DNA of 43,814 nucleotides. Origin: Desulfoscipio geothermicus DSM 3669. GTDB lineage: Bacteria; Bacillota; Desulfotomaculia; Desulfotomaculales; Desulfallaceae. The stretch lies in NCBI RefSeq assembly GCF_900115975.1, contig NZ_FOYM01000032.1:1-43814 (forward strand), given 5' to 3'. A model generated the notes under the pieces. That model was given only the letters and a program-made list of their open reading frames with translations, was not told the origin of the DNA and searched no databases. Below are positions 1-28,511 of the stretch, piece after piece. Position 1 is the first letter of the stretch; the number at the start of each line of letters is the position of its first letter. A program made the translations under genes and the position numbers.

Positions 1-47
1 GGCCTGCGCATTACGAGTGCGCTGCTCTACCACTGAGCTACGCCGGC
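1..47 (-). tRNA. tRNA-Thr (anticodon CGU), 3' part cut by window edge
   Basis: Read on the minus strand the sequence begins GCCGGCG and has a typical D arm (GCTCAGTGGTAGAGC). The anticodon stem GCGCA/TGCGC encloses the seven-base loop CTCGTAA, so the anticodon is CGU, which reads ACG threonine codons. The variable region, T arm and acceptor 3' strand lie beyond base 1. Only the 5' two-thirds is visible. Confidence 0.9.
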
Positions 48-15402: not shown

Positions 15403-16623
15403 CTAATCTTTGTCGCGCAGGGTCAAACCAAGCAGCAGCCCCAGCGCCAGCATGAATATGATCCCTGCCGTCACTCCCGGCCACCCCCGGGCGTGCCATA
15501 AAAAACCCAGCCCGGTGCTGCCGAAACTTCCACCCACATAATAAAACAGCAGGTACAGGCCCATAGCGCTGGCCCTGGCCCGCCGGGCCTGACGATTCGC
15601 CCAGGCGCTGGCCGCGGCATGGACGGCAAAAAAACCGAAACAAAAAAACAGCAGTCCCAGAACTATTGCCCACAAAGCCGGCAACAGCGTAATCAGTACA
15701 CCGCCCAGGGCGATCAGCACGCCAAGTATCACGGCAACCCGGTTGCCGGCCAAGTCAATAAACCGCCCCGATACGGTGGAGCTGATCGTACCGGCCGAGT
15801 ATGTAAGAAAAAGCCAGCCCACCGCCGCCGGCGACAGGTTGTAAGGGGGCCCGCTAAGGCGAAATGTAATATAATTAAAAATCCCCACAAAAGAAAACAT
15901 GATAACAAACGCTATACTGTAAGCTTTGAGCAGGGACCCGTTACGCAAGTGCTCCCCGATATCCTGCAACCCTTTGCGCAATCCCGCCGGAGCGGGCTTA
16001 AAGTGAGCGGACGGAGGCAGCAAAAGGTAGAATAAAATTACCCCCACCAATCCGATTATACCCATTACCAGAAAAGAGGCCCGCCAGGAGTAGGCCTCGG
16101 CCACCATGCCGCTGATCACTCGCCCGCTCATGCCGCCGATGGAGTTACCGCTTATGTATAACCCCACCGCCAACCCCAGCGCCCGGGGGGAAAACTCCTC
16201 CCCCAGGTAAGCCATGGCCACAGATGGCAGCCCGGCCAGGAGTAGGCCCTGAGCAATGCGTATTAGCAGCAATTGGTTTATGGAACTAACCAGCGGCGCC
16301 AGCAGCGCCGGCAGGACAGCCAGGGCCATGGTCCAAAACATTACCGGGCGACGGCCCACGGCATCAGATACCGGTCCGAAAATGAGCAGGGCAAAGCCCA
16401 GGGCAAAGATGGTCAGCGATACCGTCAAGCTGGATACGGCCGGGGTAATGTCAAATTCATCAACTAATAAAGGCAATAAAGGCTGAGTTATGTAAATATT
16501 GGCGAAAGTCAAAAAAGAAGCGATAAACAGCGCCAGGGAAGCGCGCCGGAATTCCGGCGTCCCCGGCACAAATCGTTCCCTCTCTACTTCCGCCCGGTTG
16601 TCGCAAATTAACAGCGGGGCCAT
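15403..16623 (-). CDS. MFS transporter, YnfM-like
   Basis: 406 residues with about 12 predicted membrane segments. The motif between segments 2 and 3 is GPVSDAVGRRPVM, a good match to the major facilitator signature G-x-x-x-D-x-x-G-R-R. Later comes GRFIDLAGNRV in the second half. It begins MAPLLICDNRAEVERERFVPGTPEFRRASLALF, like YnfM/arabinose-efflux-type exporters. The family uses the proton gradient to export small molecules; the substrate cannot be inferred. It stands alone, just downstream of the candidate guide-RNA element, whose removal of iscB may have brought it next to that RNA. Confidence 0.85.
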   Translation of the reverse strand: MAPLLICDNRAEVERERFVPGTPEFRRASLALFIASFLTFANIYITQPLLPLLVDEFDITPAVSSLTVSLTIFALGFALLIFGPVSDAVGRRPVMFWTMALAVLPALLAPLVSSINQLLLIRIAQGLLLAGLPSVAMAYLGEEFSPRALGLAVGLYISGNSIGGMSGRVISGMVAEAYSWRASFLVMGIIGLVGVILFYLLLPPSAHFKPAPAGLRKGLQDIGEHLRNGSLLKAYSIAFVIMFSFVGIFNYITFRLSGPPYNLSPAAVGWLFLTYSAGTISSTVSGRFIDLAGNRVAVILGVLIALGGVLITLLPALWAIVLGLLFFCFGFFAVHAAASAWANRQARRARASAMGLYLLFYYVGGSFGSTGLGFLWHARGWPGVTAGIIFMLALGLLLGLTLRDKD

Positions 16624-16645
16624 TGTTTTTCCTGATTTCTAAAAC

Positions 16646-16675
16646 TTACGCATACTTACTTAAAATATAGCGCAT
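16646..16675 (-). pseudogene. possible iscB start remnant (nine codons)
   Basis: On the minus strand ATG at 16675 starts MRYILSKYA and then a TAA stop. IscB proteins typically begin with a short strand of the type M-x-Y-V-x-V-L-S-K-x-G-K-P-L-M, so YILSK could be its first residues. The position, directly after the candidate guide RNA and a GAAAGGGTGAAA stretch, is where iscB starts in such loci. The rest of the gene is absent. Nine residues are too few to prove this. Confidence 0.35.
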
Positions 16676-16683
16676 GTTTTTCA

Positions 16684-16900
16684 CCCTTTCGACAAATGGG
16701 CGGCAGTGTCACAGGATTCAACTGCCAGGCCATAGACTCTCGCCTATGTTCCGGGTGGTTCACCTTTTTGGATCACCGCCGGTAGCTTTGCGGCAACCGT
16801 TCTGCCCGGAAAGGGTGTTACCCTTGCCTCGGTAGCCAACTTATGACAGCAGCCTTTCACAGCGGTACTGCTGCCATACCGCAAACTTATGAGAATAGGA
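16684..16900 (-). ncRNA. candidate HEARO / IscB-type omega RNA, orphan
   Basis: About 215 bases on the minus strand with dense secondary structure and no coding frame. Visible elements in order are a hairpin TGGCAGCAG / CTGCTGTCA, a small hairpin GGGTAACACCC, CGCAAAGCTACCGGCGGTGA, then GGTGAACCACCCGGAACATAG with the partner GAGTCTATGGCC, and a 3' hairpin GGCAGT / ACTGCC. It ends CGAAAGGGTG just before a short ATG frame. From memory, the CCCGGAAC-ATAG core followed by a GCCxGG stem resembles IscB-associated guide RNAs (HEARO). Two copies of AACTTATGA (16838, 16884, plus strand) flank the first hairpin. This is recognition from memory and was not tested with a covariance model. Confidence 0.5.
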
Positions 16901-16928
16901 TTACCCTATACCTAACAGTTTTTTCCGG

Positions 16929-17072
16929 TTAAACGTGCCAGGAAACCAGGCTGTTCACCCCTTTCTTTTGCAGATGTTTTAGTACGGTTTTCTTTATGGA
17001 AGCCCAATATATTGTTACCAGCAGATGTACATGATCAGGCATAATTTCATTTGCGAAGGTCCAAAATCCAGT
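16929..17072 (-). mobile_element. IS200/IS605-type TnpA (Y1 HUH transposase) fragment
   Basis: About 45 codons on the minus strand reading WTFANEIMPDHVHLLVTI and ending VSWHV before a TAA. IMPDHVHLLV is the HUH (His-x-His) metal-binding signature of IS200-like and REP-associated Y1 transposases. The N-terminal part and the catalytic tyrosine region are missing, so it is inactive. It lies directly upstream, in transcription sense, of the candidate omega RNA and may be the relic of the same or a neighbouring element. Confidence 0.65.
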
Positions 17073-17143
17073 TTTTTTTCCAAATTATACCGCCAACAAG
17101 TATTACCATATACATAAAAAAATGCAGAAAAGATCAAAACTAA

Positions 17144-17180
17144 GCCCGTTAATCATAGCCCCAAAGGGAACGGGCATTTT
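17144..17180. terminator. terminator downstream of the PAS kinase
   Basis: GCCCGTT (17144-17150) pairs with AACGGGC (17169-17175), with a smaller CCCTTTGGGG-like pairing inside. T-rich tracts occur on both sides, so it may act on both strands. It lies 60 bases past the stop of the minus-strand histidine kinase. Confidence 0.55.
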
Positions 17181-17234
17181 TGTTGTACATTTCTTTGTAC
17201 TATGCATTAACTTAACCCGAAAGCAATACCGCAG

Positions 17235-18728
17235 TTAAATTTCGCCTGCTGGCAAAATTACCGAAAATGTGGTCCCTGCCCCGGGTAGGCTGGTCACTTT
17301 AATCTCTCCCCGGTGATCAGCGATAATACGGTTGGAAATAGCCAATCCCAGGCCCGTACCATCTTCTTTGGTGCTGACAAAAGGGTCAAATACTTTATCC
17401 AGCAGGCCCTTCGGAATACCCACGCCGTTATCAATTAAATCAATGATTACCATGGATTGATCATCCGACGCCGTCGATTTGATGGTTAGAACACCTTTTT
17501 CACCCATTGCCTGAAAAGCGTTGCTGATGATGTTTAAAAACACCTGGCTCAGCTGGTCCTTGTCCCCGACAACGGACGGCAGGGAGGGGGCCAGTACTTT
17601 GTTAATTTTGATGTTTTGGCGCAGAGCCTCGTTTTCCATTAGAAACATCACTTCGTTTAACAGGCTGTTGATATCTAGTAGCTGGATTTGTGTTTGCTTG
17701 GGTTTAGCCAGGTTTAAGAAATCGGTAATGATTTGATTAACCCGATCGATTTCCGCCAACATTAGGTTCACTTGGTCGTCAAACTCGTTAATCCCCATTT
17801 GCCGAAGTTTTTGATGAATCACCTGCACAAATCCTCGCACGGTGGTTAGGGGGTTCCTGATTTCGTGGGCCGTGCCGGCCGCTAGCTCACCAATTATGGA
17901 AAGCTTTTCACTTCTGGCCAGCTGTAATTCAATTTCTTTAATCTTGGTGATATTTTTAAGAAAAATAATCGTTCCGTCCGATTCATCCACATCATTTTTT
18001 AGCAGGTAGGTGTCGCAAATATAATGATGCTTATTATTGTTTATGTAAAATACCAGCTCACGGTCCCGGATTTCCTTTTGCTTGGTTAAAGCGTTCAATA
18101 CTTGCTCTTTGTCCTCGATAAATTGCCCGATGAAATCACCAAAGGGCTGACCAATCACCTGTCGCTGACTGAAACTGAAACTTTTTTCGGCATATTTGTT
18201 GAACATAGTAATCTTCAAGCTATTGTCCACTGCAATGACGCCGGTGTTGATAGTATTTAAGATGATCTCCGATTGTTTTAGCAGTTTGTTATAGCTAACC
18301 TCACGGGTAATATCGTGGACCAGACAAACAGCCCCCGACCGTACCTTATTGCCGCTAAAAATGGGATAAATATGTACGTTAACGGGTATGTTGGTATGTT
18401 CGTCAATGAGCATGTTGTCCCGGCAATTCATGATGGGGATGCCAAAATCTAGAATTTTAGTAACTTCCTCATCTTTAAAATCCATTTCATTAAAACAAAC
18501 GTTGTTTTTTGTTGGTACAGCGCCAGCGCAGCACAGTTCATCAAAAGCCTTATTGGTTGTCACCACCTGGCCTTGCTGGTCCACCACAATAATAGGCTGG
18601 GTAATCCGGTGTAATATCTCGCCGGATATTTTTTTTAGCAGGTCCTTGCCGTCCGGGTCTAAAATGTGGCCTACTATCATGGTTAAAGGGAATGATTGCA
18701 GATCCGGCGCAGAATAAGACGGTATCAT
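17235..18728 (-). CDS. cytoplasmic PAS-domain sensor histidine kinase
   Basis: 497 residues without membrane segments. Two PAS domains (about residues 35-140 and 150-260) are followed by HisKA with the phospho-histidine in TAHEIRNPLTTVRGF (His288). The ATPase domain has N403, DNGVGIP (433-439), FDPF and GTGLGL (457-462). The layout matches the soluble sporulation kinases KinA/KinE and NtrB-like kinases: two PAS sensors and the HEIRNP box. A role in starvation or sporulation phosphorelay is likely but is inference. No response regulator lies beside it. AAGGGGG precedes the ATG by seven bases and a TATAAT lies upstream. It is more AT-rich than the genes before 16.6 kb. Confidence 0.88.
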   Translation of the reverse strand: MIPSYSAPDLQSFPLTMIVGHILDPDGKDLLKKISGEILHRITQPIIVVDQQGQVVTTNKAFDELCCAGAVPTKNNVCFNEMDFKDEEVTKILDFGIPIMNCRDNMLIDEHTNIPVNVHIYPIFSGNKVRSGAVCLVHDITREVSYNKLLKQSEIILNTINTGVIAVDNSLKITMFNKYAEKSFSFSQRQVIGQPFGDFIGQFIEDKEQVLNALTKQKEIRDRELVFYINNNKHHYICDTYLLKNDVDESDGTIIFLKNITKIKEIELQLARSEKLSIIGELAAGTAHEIRNPLTTVRGFVQVIHQKLRQMGINEFDDQVNLMLAEIDRVNQIITDFLNLAKPKQTQIQLLDINSLLNEVMFLMENEALRQNIKINKVLAPSLPSVVGDKDQLSQVFLNIISNAFQAMGEKGVLTIKSTASDDQSMVIIDLIDNGVGIPKGLLDKVFDPFVSTKEDGTGLGLAISNRIIADHRGEIKVTSLPGAGTTFSVILPAGEI

Positions 18729-19311: not shown

Positions 19312-19680
19312 TTAAGAACCTATTCCCCTAATTCTAATCCTGTTTTCTTCCACGATCCATAAGTTACCACAAATCTTTTCTTCACTGGAGGCAAGAACGG
19401 GTAATAATTTATTAACTAAAGTTATAACAGCTCTTTTACTTTGATTTTCAACCCTTAAAACAATTATGCCCTTAAATTTTTCGGGTGGATAGGCAAAAAT
19501 ATTTGAAAAATCATTATCCAGCGTAATTAAAACCCGTTGTTCCTTTTTGCATATTGCAATTAATTGCCTGTCCGAGCACCCTTCAATACCTTCAGAATAA
19601 ACAGAATGTGCTTCATGACCCGTATTTTCAAAAACATCAATCACATCTACAGGCATATTTTCATCAATTTTTATTCTCAT
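19312..19680 (-). CDS. DUF5615 PIN-like protein, probable toxin
   Basis: 122 residues starting MRIKIDENMPVDVIDVFENTGHEA, with D in DRQLIAICKKE and TLDNDFSNI. These are the pattern of DUF5615/Mut7-C-like PIN proteins: an N-terminal DEN acidic motif and a central LDxDF acidic motif that bind metal in a PIN nuclease fold. Partners of DUF433 proteins with this fold are regarded as RNase toxins of type II toxin-antitoxin pairs. AGGTG lies eight bases before the ATG. The gene follows the DUF433 gene by 11 bases. Activity against RNA is inferred from family and pairing. Confidence 0.82.
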   Translation of the reverse strand: MRIKIDENMPVDVIDVFENTGHEAHSVYSEGIEGCSDRQLIAICKKEQRVLITLDNDFSNIFAYPPEKFKGIIVLRVENQSKRAVITLVNKLLPVLASSEEKICGNLWIVEENRIRIRGIGS

Positions 19681-19691
19681 AAGGATTTCAC

Positions 19692-19931
<240 letters not shown>

Positions 19932-20169: not shown

Positions 20170-20403
20170 CTAGCCATGGTAGCTAGTTAATAAAATGCTG
20201 ATTTTTTTAAATATCAAATGTATTGATCGTTGTGATAATCGCCTGGGTTTACTCCTCTCCGTCACAAAAAGAGCCTTTTCAGTATCTTTACGACTGTCAA
20301 GGTATTTTTTAAGCGCGCGGGCTGCCCGGGCACCGATGAATATCACTCTTTCCTTGTTTCCTTTTCCAATAACCGAAAAGCATCTCTCTTGCCAGTGCAA
20401 CAT
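20170..20403 (-). pseudogene. tyrosine recombinase (phage integrase / XerC-like) fragment
   Basis: 77 codons reading FSVIGKGNKERVIFIGARAARALKKYLDSR and then LSQRSIHLIFKKI. GKGNKER-x-(I/V)-P/F-I is the start of the integrase catalytic domain. The catalytic Arg-His-Tyr C-terminal portion and the N-terminal core-binding domain are missing. It is inactive debris of an integrase and marks past mobile-element activity next to the TA pair. Confidence 0.75.
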
Positions 20404-26792: not shown

Positions 26793-28511
26793 TTAAAATA
26801 AAAAGTACCTCTGGGCCAAAGAAAGTGTTTGCGAAGGTTCACAGGTTAAATGTTCCCCATCAACTCTCACTTGGTATGTTTCAGGATCCACATCAATATT
26901 AGGCGTGGCGTTATTTAAAACCATGTCTTTCTTCGATACATTTCTGCAGCCGACAACCGGTACAACTTGTTTCTGAAGGTTTAATTTCTCAAGAGCTCCC
27001 GATTCCAGTGCCGCCTTGGATACAAAAGTCAGACATGTGCTGTACTTGGCCCGGCCAAAAGCGCCAAACATTTTTCTATAAATCACCGGTTGCGGTGTAG
27101 GTATTGACGCGTTGGCATCGCCCATTTTACTGGCGACAATAAATCCTCCCTTAATAATCATCTCCGGCTTGACTCCAAACATAGCCGGTTTCCATAAAAC
27201 AACATCAGCAAGTTTACCTTTTTCCAAAGAACCCACATAATTAGCCATGCCGTGTGTTAATGCAGGATTAATCGTATATTTGGCTACATATCTCTTCACA
27301 CGGAAATTATCATTCCGGTCACTGTCTTCCGGTAACGGACCCCTTTGTTTTTTCATTTTATCAGCAGTCTGCCAGGTTCTGATAATAACTTCTCCGACTC
27401 TGCCCATGGCCTGGGAATCAGAAGCCATCATGCTGAATACGCCCAAGTCATGCAGAATATCTTCCGCAGCAATGGTCTCCGGCCGTATTCTTGAGTCGGC
27501 AAAGGCAACATCCTCGGGCACCTTGCTGTCCAGGTGGTGACAAACCATCAGCATATCTAAATGTTCGTCTATGGTGTTGACCGTAAAAGGCATGGTCGGA
27601 TTTGTGGAAGACGGCAGCACATTCGGCAGCGCAGCAACCTTGATGATATCAGGCGCATGGCCGCCGCCGGCTCCTTCAGTATGAAAAGTATGAATTACCC
27701 TTCCATCAATAGCTCGCATGGTATCTTCGACAAAACCCGCTTCGTTTAACGTATCAGTATGGATAGCAACTTGTACATCATACCTGTCGGCTACCTGCAA
27801 GCATGTATCTATAGCTTTCGATGTTGTTCCCCAGTCTTCATGTAATTTTAGCCCGATGGCTCCCGCTTCAACTTGCTCAACCAGCGGACCTGCAAAGGAT
27901 GCATTACCCTTGCCCAAAAAACCAAGGTTCATGGGAAAGCTTTCAGCAGCTTCCAGCATTCTATGGATATGAAAACTGCCAGGTGTGCAAGTGGTGGCGT
28001 TGGTGCCATCCGCCGGTCCCGTTCCTCCGCCGAGCATTGTTGTAATACCGCTGTACAACGCCGTTTCAATCTGCTGGGGACAAATGAAATGAATATGCGC
28101 GTCAATGCCGCCCGGCGTAGCTATGAGCCCTTCGCCGGCAATCACCTCTGTCGCGGCGCCGATGACTAAATCCGGCGCTACACCATCCATTACATCTGGA
28201 TTTCCCGCCTTGCCGATACCGACAATTTTACCGTCCCTGACACCGATATCACCTTTCACAATCCCCCAGGAATCAACTACTATGGCATTGGTGATAACCA
28301 AATCCAAAACACCATCTTGCCTTGCCGCTGACGGCGATTGACCCATGCCGTCCCGGATTGATTTACCACCCCCAAATTTACATTCATCTCCGTAAAATGT
28401 AAAATCATCTTCAATCTCTATGATCAAATCCGTATCAGCAAGTCTTATTCGGTCGCCCTTTGTTGGACCGTACATGCCTGCATAATCCCGGCCCGGTATT
28501 TTATAGCTCAC
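26793..28511 (-). CDS. ureC: urease alpha subunit UreC
   Basis: 572 residues, standard length. Nickel ligands are His139 and His141 in GIDAHIHF, the carbamylated Lys222 in GLKLHEDWG, His251 ([10 protein letters not shown]), His277 ([14 protein letters not shown]) and Asp365 (MASDSQAMG). The flap Cys324 and catalytic His325 are in MVCHHLD. All active-site residues are in place, so it should be active. The enzyme hydrolyses urea to ammonia and carbamate in the cytoplasm. It follows ureB without a gap and precedes ureE. Confidence 0.98.

What the first reader, a model, noticed from the sequence alone, without database searches (positions are those of the whole stretch)
16646..16900. Orphan IscB-type guide RNA (HEARO/omega RNA) with a nine-codon iscB stub
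A ~215-base, non-coding, heavily structured minus-strand block has a core (CCCGGAAC-ATAG, GCC-TGG) recalled from IscB guide RNAs and ends directly before ATG reading MRYILSK, where iscB starts. iscB itself is gone and the MFS gene follows. A solitary guide RNA could still bind a trans-acting IscB, regulate, or be silent debris. The 5' flank beyond 16900 would be the guide. Motifs are seen; family is recalled; function is inferred.
Basis: partly seen in the sequence, partly recalled or inferred. Interest (0 to 1): 0.72.

Follow-up and report, generated by a model that had tools for sequence, protein, structure and literature searches.

The report
Orphan guide RNA at ribosome-binding site
The block is not an IscB guide RNA but the surviving right end of a small jumping gene (an IS607-type element with a TnpB protein) that carries a structured, probably guide, RNA and belongs to a family that mostly lands inside the ribosome-binding sites of host genes, including genes for ribosomal proteins.

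Summary
The structured minus-strand block is real, but it is not HEARO/IscB: Rfam gives no match, and the "iscB stub" is one arm of a terminal hairpin whose ATG occurs in 2 of 98 copies. It is the right end of an IS607-family element. In full copies the order is left end, tnpA (IS607 transposase, 183.7 bits, cut-off 110), a divergent ~485-residue tnpB, this RNA, then a right end reading AGAAACCAGG. The RNA has covarying helices (15 of 28 pairs) and occurs at 115 places in 34 of 113 genomes of the order. By position and structure it is probably the TnpB guide-RNA scaffold, so the guide would run into the downstream gene's start, not lie beyond 16900. The unexpected result is that these elements sit in Shine-Dalgarno sequences: 67 of 92 unique right ends have a start codon 6-10 nt beyond the terminal GG (8.3% of control GGs), and most empty sites checked in relatives carry GGAGG there. 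A published IS607 TnpB target-adjacent motif, AGGAG, is nearly the same sequence (PMC11061315). The window copy shows no left end, and no intact cognate TnpB was found in its genome.

The parts
16929..17009 (-). remnant of the tnpB 3' end (~27 codons, one in-frame TAA)
   Evidence: profile match positions 450-479, E 0.034, 1 TAA; tblastn 25 residues
17017..17052 (-). possible fragment of an IS200/IS605 tnpA (reads MPDHVHLLV), tentative; that this resembles Y1 transposases is recalled
   Evidence: weak blastn to annotated IS200/IS605 tnpA in two plasmid records, E 0.05 and 0.6; reading seen
16831..16920 (-). 5' hairpin part of the non-coding block
   Evidence: conserved in copies; fold
16677..16830 (-). 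core of the structured RNA, proposed TnpB guide-RNA scaffold
   Evidence: R1 match 154.6 bits; covariation in 23 copies
16631..16676 (-). terminal hairpin and right end of the element (AGAAATCAGG; family consensus AGAAACCAGG); terminal GG = 16631-16632
   Evidence: alignment of copies
16646..16675 (-). ATG-to-TAA frame of nine codons called 'iscB stub': part of the terminal hairpin, not a gene start
   Evidence: ATG present in 2 of 98 copies; nearest copies have none
16611..16630 (-). where the guide segment would lie if the RNA is a TnpB guide RNA (7 nt spacer plus start of the MFS gene); inferred, 20 nt assumed
   Evidence: geometry of the right end; published IS607 reRNA with a 20-nt guide (PMC11061315)
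15403..16623 (-). MFS transporter gene whose start codon lies 7 nt after the element's terminal GG
   Evidence: ORF, PF07690 160.5 bits, distance

Best explanation
The block is the right end of a decayed IS607-family insertion sequence together with the RNA scaffold that its TnpB protein would have used as guide RNA. Shown: the element family is tnpA (IS607 serine recombinase) - tnpB - structured RNA - right end, and its copies mostly sit in Shine-Dalgarno motifs (GGAGG) in the orientation of the downstream gene. Inferred: TnpA exchanges strands at the 3' GG of GGAGG; TnpB bound to this RNA recognises GGAGG as its target-adjacent motif and the gene start that follows as target, so it would act on unoccupied sites and not on occupied ones, where the element's own right end replaces the motif. 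The window copy shows no left end, no tnpA of this family and only a tail of tnpB, so it should not move by itself; its RNA could work only with a TnpB supplied in trans. It is most likely an inert relic whose right end (CAGG) now serves as a weak ribosome-binding site of the MFS gene.
For: IS607 TnpA 183.7 bits over a cut-off of 110; TnpB with TIGR01766 at 31-38 bits (cut-off 32; two of four proteins over it) and NF040570 at 40-60 bits (cut-off 100). RNA directly downstream of tnpB and ending at the element end. Covariation: 15 of 28 pairs change on both sides; 0 of 500 shuffles reach the observed covariation score. Start codon with ORF >=50 aa at 6-10 nt after the terminal GG in 67 of 92 unique junctions, against 1390 of 16784 control GGs, 49 of 272 GGAGG and 18 of 63 AGGAGG. 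Left boundary reads GGAGG, within one base, in 9 of 9 copies whose boundary was set by alignment. Empty sites: GGAGG before the transketolase start in 7 of 8 other genomes of the genus, and before rpmF in 14 of 19 other genomes of the family that matched. Published IS607 TnpBs have TAM AGGAG in 18 of 22 strains (PMC11061315, passage). No intact cognate TnpB found in the own genome.
Against: No expression or biochemical data; the guide-RNA role is inferred from position and structure. The published IS607 guide RNA is RAGATH-18, and this RNA matches no Rfam family, so it is at best a different class. In all 9 clostridial-side TnpBs aligned, the third RuvC acid is His (Asp in 3 Thermus-side relatives, two of them identical there), so cleavage activity is uncertain. 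25 of 92 junctions lack a start codon at 6-10 nt; of full-tnpB copies only 16 of 26 have it. Some short copies do not show GGAGG at the left boundary (L124, L126, L131, L135). MFS orthologues read in 7 relatives have no GGAGG before the likely start (L237 has AGGAG, L238 GGAG), so the pre-insertion motif of the window site is not shown. A long-range helix between the tnpB end and the core was tested and not supported. One of five covariation measures, further pair types, is reached by 12 of 500 shuffles.
Confidence: 0.85

Rival explanations
1. An IscB/IsrB omega RNA (HEARO) with a decayed iscB gene.
For: Structured RNA of similar length (HEARO model 211 positions), RNA-guided-nuclease setting, a short ATG frame reading MRYILSK.
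Against: No HEARO match at E<=10 in the region or E<=1 in the genome (in 14 control genomes that search rings once, below cut-off). 26 of 99 copies have near-full tnpB upstream and 14 more a part of it. The ATG is present in 2 of 98 copies.
Confidence: 0.02
2. The RNA is mainly a leader or ribozyme that protects the host gene, for instance by leaving the transcript (IStron-like splicing) so that GGAGG is restored, or by supporting initiation from the right end.
For: Insertion takes the median Shine-Dalgarno duplex from -12.3 to -3.8 kcal/mol (random -3.0), yet copies sit before rpmB, rpsR, rpmF and pyrG (names by eye from sequence); exact removal would restore the site.
Against: No group I or II intron match in six element loci at E<=1. 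Copies without tnpB and without a left end that I could see decay (median 80 bits, against 148.5 with full tnpB and 140 with left end), which is not expected if the host gene needed the RNA.
Confidence: 0.07
3. The Shine-Dalgarno association is mostly what survives: elements insert at any GGAGG or GG and those inside genes are purged. (This concerns the cause of the pattern and can hold together with the best explanation.)
For: IS607 TnpA needs GG with little further specificity (PMC4058570, PMC6188088, passages); 18% of GGAGG sites in the same flanks are already before start codons.
Against: Insertions at intergenic GG or GGAGG elsewhere would also survive; GGAGG at 9 of 9 alignment-set left boundaries and at most empty sites shows motif choice beyond GG. 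Purging may still explain part of the rise from 18% to 73%.
Confidence: 0.4

Closest known systems
IS607 TnpB with RAGATH-18 reRNA (ISFba1 and relatives; PMC11061315, passages read)
   Same: IS607 element; structured RNA next to tnpB and outside its coding sequence; published TAM AGGAG or GAGGG, which overlaps the GGAGG seen here
   Different: RNA matches no Rfam family; TnpB here ~485 aa against 330-433 aa, below the NF040570 cut-off, third RuvC acid His
HEARO / IscB omega RNA (Rfam RF02033)
   Same: transposon-encoded structured RNA of ~200 nt next to an RNA-guided nuclease gene
   Different: no covariance match; here the RNA is downstream of the nuclease gene (that HEARO lies upstream of iscB is recalled); nuclease is TnpB-like
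Group B IStrons (IS607-type IS fused to a group I intron; PMC4227781, passages read)
   Same: IS607-type element, insertion next to GG, copies without ORFs known
   Different: no group I intron detected; here insertion is before start codons and no splicing is shown
TldR (RNA-guided transcription factors related to TnpB; seen in search listings, details recalled) and Cas12m2 (PMC10442227, passages read)
   Same: altered RuvC active site with RNA-guided architecture kept; Cas12m2 is the best Foldseek hit
   Different: here only the third acid is changed and the protein is still part of a mobile element; Cas12m2 has the first Asp as His and the Glu as Asp; the model here is of low confidence

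Membership tests
HEARO / IscB omega RNA | covariance match to RF02033 | tested here: not met
HEARO / IscB omega RNA | iscB gene directly downstream in intact copies | tested here: not met
   a host gene start follows in 67 of 92 junctions; near-full tnpB is upstream in 26 of 99 copies
IS607 family element | MerR-HTH plus serine recombinase TnpA | tested here: met
   NF033518 183.7 bits over 110, PF00239 and PF00376 over cut-off for L047; the window copy itself has no tnpA match
IS607 family element | GG at the exchange site | tested here: met
   right ends end in GG, empty sites mostly GGAGG
TnpB RNA-guided nuclease | TnpB profile | tested here: inconclusive
   TIGR01766 31-38 bits, cut-off 32, two of four over it; NF040570 40-60 bits, cut-off 100; PF07282 below cut-off or absent
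TnpB RNA-guided nuclease | RuvC Asp-Glu-Asp triad | tested here: not met
   Asp and Glu invariant in 12 of 12; third residue His in 9 of 12, Asp in 3 of 12
TnpB guide RNA (omega RNA / reRNA) | conserved structured RNA between tnpB and the right end | tested here: met
   position and covariation
TnpB guide RNA (omega RNA / reRNA) | binds TnpB and directs it to DNA with a guide from the flank | not testable with these tools
   needs biochemistry
RAGATH-18 reRNA | covariance match to RAGATH-18 | tested here: not met
   no match among 4227 Rfam families at E<=10 in the window region or E<=1 in six element loci; that Rfam holds RAGATH-18 I take from PMC11061315, its accession was not looked up
IStron | group I intron in the element | tested here: not met
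   no Rfam intron match in six element loci

The most novel reading that the evidence does not exclude
A family of RNA-guided mobile elements that uses the Shine-Dalgarno sequence as insertion target and as target-adjacent motif at once, so that each copy's guide is the start of the gene it sits in front of. Short copies of ~350-480 bp, carrying only both ends, the tnpA promoter region and the guide RNA, spread with TnpA and TnpB supplied in trans. With His in place of the third RuvC acid, TnpB might bind or nick unoccupied gene starts instead of cutting them, i.e. silence or mark them. The block in the window is a relic of this system.
Probability: 0.3. Interest if true: 0.85.

Novelty: new variant of a known kind. 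Interest (0 to 1): 0.6.

Why it matters
Ribosome-binding sites recur in front of most bacterial genes. A transposon family that uses them as landing site would find a target beside very many genes, at the price of replacing the host's own signal. It would also give a reason why a TnpB target-adjacent motif is AGGAG; the main text of the paper reporting that motif holds no 'Shine', 'ribosome' or 'RBS'. It offers a large natural set of solitary guide RNAs and occupied/empty site pairs on which guide use, trans mobilisation and the cost of losing a Shine-Dalgarno sequence can be tested directly, and it adds a structured RNA class without a match in Rfam 15.

Tried and rejected
HEARO: searched three ways, no match. 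RAGATH-18 and group I/II introns: no match in six element loci. Plasmid and phage collections: only short matches. Viral contigs: no relative of TnpB. Long-range helix between the end of tnpB and the RNA core, suggested by the fold of the window copy: own pairings are no better than swapped ones (mean -10.7 against -11.1 kcal/mol, 37 copies), so not claimed. Structure of TnpB: the AlphaFold model is poor (mean pLDDT 62.4, pTM 0.42); the best Foldseek hits are Cas12m2 (E 1e-7) and Cas12f, but their TM-scores are 0.2-0.33; weak support for the fold class only. Solved-structure sequence search: no hit. Rfam scan of four loci with other TnpB matches of this genome: only two tRNAs in one of them. 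The left-end scan used a pattern that contains GGAGG, so it is not evidence that left ends have GGAGG; 7 of its 30 rows (L015, L050, L052, L053, L061, L112, L163) I judge false. The search of the class repeated the same 113 genomes as the order.

Rows dropped: of 115 places (sum of its table), 99 were fetched and analysed; 16 were left out (14 with E from 4.7e-8 to 8.8e-5 and two 46-nt partial matches in G024). Of the 99, L049 has no recognisable right end, L130 has under 200 nt of flank, and 5 are duplicates by the 40 nt after the right end, which leaves 92. Seven degenerate right ends (L116, L145, L147, L155, L170, L173, L176) were added with patterns chosen by eye after the automatic pass, which gave 71 of 90 at 3-20 nt with ORF >=60 aa (control 3686 of 16318). 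Orthologous insertions inherited from an ancestor (for example L155, L170, L174) still count apart, so the binomial p-values are too small. rpmB (12 nt) and pyrG (4 nt) are outside the 6-10 nt window and count as misses there.

Full report
What is there. On the minus strand, 16920-16631 is a structured non-coding block. As single-stranded RNA, 16632-16925 folds at -102.9 kcal/mol, z -4.1 against 200 shuffles. It is a repeat: the own genome has three more copies (C49 93%, C34 89%, C40 80% over part), and 20 of 100 genomes searched, own genome included, have DNA matches at E<=0.001.

It is not HEARO. Rfam gives no HEARO hit in the window at gathering level, none in 16400-17250 at E<=10, and none in the whole genome at E<=1. 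The frame MRYILSK at 16675-16646 is one arm of a terminal inverted repeat: the nearest copies read AACTTACGC...GCGTAAGTT at the same place (L017, L018, L036), and of 98 copies with a right end only the window and L171 have an ATG there.

It is the right end of an IS607-family element. In full copies the order is: left end beginning GGAGG, tnpA, tnpB, this RNA, right end AGAAACCAGG (L047 is 2431 bp). TnpA scores 183.7 bits with NF033518 (cut-off 110). TnpB is divergent: NF040570 40-60 bits (cut-off 100), TIGR01766 31-38 bits (cut-off 32; two of four proteins over it). Named carriers of tnpB relatives in the genome collection include Desulforamulus putei, Desulfotruncus arcticus, Desulforadius tongensis and Pelotomaculum (64-88%), Desulfosporosinus lacus (46%), Anaerosalibacter (44%) and Thermus and Thermaceae (30-33%, one short match 44%). 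In the window, what remains above the RNA is a tnpB tail at 16929-17009 with one stop, then possibly a scrap of an IS200-type tnpA (weak). I see no left end. No intact cognate TnpB was found in this genome: a search with one member and one with a nine-row profile gave fragments on C34, C49 and C39, and a remote match to another TnpB on C82. The TnpB domain PF07282 has five matches in the genome, among them C82 (358 aa) and C38 (322 aa). The assembly has 83 contigs, so a copy lost at a contig end is possible.

The RNA. In 23 copies, 15 of 28 predicted pairs change on both sides and stay paired; 97.0% of cells pair (shuffled mean 88.0%), and no shuffle of 500 reaches the covariation score; the count of further pair types is reached by 12 of 500. 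The structure was derived from the same alignment, which favours it. A covariance model finds 115 places in 34 of 113 genomes of the order at E<=1e-4. No Rfam family matches the block: in the window region only four chance-level hits at E<=10, and in six element loci the only significant hit, a TPP riboswitch in L063, lies outside the element. By position (downstream of tnpB, up to the element end, outside the coding sequence) it corresponds to the reRNA of IS607 TnpBs described in PMC11061315 (passages read), but it is not that RNA class.

Where it lands. Of 99 places fetched, 92 give a unique right end with enough flank. In 67 of 92 a start codon opening a frame of at least 50 codons lies 6-10 nt after the terminal GG; among 16784 control GGs in the same flanks it is 1390 (8.3%). 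The distance peaks at 7 and 8 nt (21 and 23 of 92). Against GGAGG sites the control is 49 of 272, against AGGAGG 18 of 63. By class: full tnpB 16 of 26, partial 11 of 12, none 40 of 54. Downstream genes, named by eye from their sequence, include rpmB (L107/L110, 12 nt), rpsR (L165, 7 nt), rpmF (L137 9 nt, L168 10 nt), pyrG (L120/L122, 4 nt), a transketolase subunit (L048, 7 nt) and thiC (L063, 8 nt). Empty sites support the target: at the transketolase site 7 of 8 other genomes of the genus have GGAGG just before the start; at the rpmF site 14 of 19 other genomes that matched have it, four have AGGGG-type sequences and one carries an insertion of its own. Left boundaries set by alignment read GGAGG, within one base, in 9 of 9 copies from three genomes, but several short copies show none (L124, L126, L131, L135). 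Farther relatives: after the terminal CCAGG a start codon with ORF >=50 aa lies at 13 nt in D. lacus, 7 nt in Anaerosalibacter, 6 nt in Thermus L222 and 5 nt in L221 (53 aa); two Thermaceae loci, L223 and L224, which share the same flank start, have none within 20 nt.

For the window copy: AGAAATCAGG (one change from consensus), 7 nt, then ATG of the MFS gene. Eight relatives of 59 have an MFS match; of the seven I read, none has GGAGG before the likely start (L237 has AGGAG, L238 GGAG), so the original motif at this site is inferred.

Short copies. 59 of 99 places have no tnpB match upstream; 9 of these have under 400 nt of upstream sequence. By my reading 18 of the remaining 50 show a left end starting GGAGG; those measured are 346-480 bp. 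Those I read keep a TTGACA...TATAAT-like promoter or a second GGAGG followed by an ATG like the tnpA start, so they look like internal deletions that could still transcribe the RNA; no promoter was tested. RNA intactness follows mobility: median model score 148.5 bits with full tnpB (26), 138 with partial tnpB (14), 140 for tnpB-less copies with a left end (18), 80 for tnpB-less copies in which I saw none (32), 100 at contig edges (9). The decay of the fourth group speaks for debris and against a kept host function. The window copy (154.6 bits, partial tnpB) is still intact in sequence.

Cost to the host. Replacing GGAGG by the right end takes the median duplex energy with the anti-Shine-Dalgarno sequence from -12.3 to -3.8 kcal/mol, near random 20-mers at -3.0 (73 junctions; the 'before' state assumes GGAGG at every site). 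How genes such as rpmB live with this is open; splicing of the element from the mRNA is not excluded, though no known intron class is present in six loci.

TnpB activity. In 12 aligned TnpBs the first RuvC Asp and the Glu are invariant, while the third acid is Asp in 3 Thermus-side sequences (two identical there) and His in the 9 others. Cas12m2, with His at the first position and Asp for Glu, binds without cutting (PMC10442227, passages). That His also serves in some RuvC-type sites is recalled, not looked up. So this TnpB may cut, nick or only bind.

Mechanism proposed. Shown: element type, RNA conservation, insertion mostly in Shine-Dalgarno motifs. Inferred: TnpA exchanges at the 3' GG of GGAGG; TnpB with this RNA reads GGAGG as target-adjacent motif (published motif AGGAG for relatives) and the following gene start as target; occupied sites are spared because the right end replaces the motif. 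Inferred for the window: immobile, no partner found in the assembly, likely inert.

Print search. Full-text searches for TnpB with Shine-Dalgarno (3 papers), IS607 with ribosome binding site (2), TnpB with ribosome binding site (8), IS607 with AGGAG (1), IS607 with target site and TnpB (24), RAGATH-18 with TnpB (7) and a general target-site search gave listings in which no title or abstract start reports this targeting. I read passages of five papers (PMC11061315, PMC4058570, PMC4227781, PMC6188088, PMC10442227), none in full; papers outside the library were not searched.

Noticed in passing
window 28061-28356 (+): Rfam 5_ureB_sRNA match (75.6 bits) lies antisense inside an ORF that by eye reads as urease alpha subunit (26793-28511 minus); probably the conserved coding sequence rather than a real antisense RNA.
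   Followed up: partly
window 19312-19913 (-): DUF433 and DUF5615 (PIN-like) gene pair, a layout I recall as typical of toxin-antitoxin modules; next to a phage-integrase fragment at 20170-20403.
   Followed up: partly
L063 755-853 and 928-3009: The element in front of thiC sits between a TPP riboswitch (74.1 bits) and the thiC start, so riboswitch control of thiC may be broken or rerouted there.
   Followed up: no
L155, L170, L174: Apparently orthologous insertion in three genomes of one genus: RNA scores are 91, 54 and 41 bits, while the right end reads ACGAGGTG in two of them, a better Shine-Dalgarno match than CCAGG. May be host adaptation after insertion.
   Followed up: partly
L195 (G102), L168 (G054) and L137 (G070): rpmF carries an element end in three genomes of two genera, so the same ribosomal-protein leader was hit more than once or long ago.
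   Followed up: no
L127, L136, L137, L139, L142 (G070): Five copies of one genome match the RNA model over 223-229 nt instead of about 154: an extra stretch with its own inverted repeat inside the RNA (seen in the alignment for L028 and L041).
   Followed up: no
window 1-47 (-): tRNA gene cut by the contig end.
   Followed up: no
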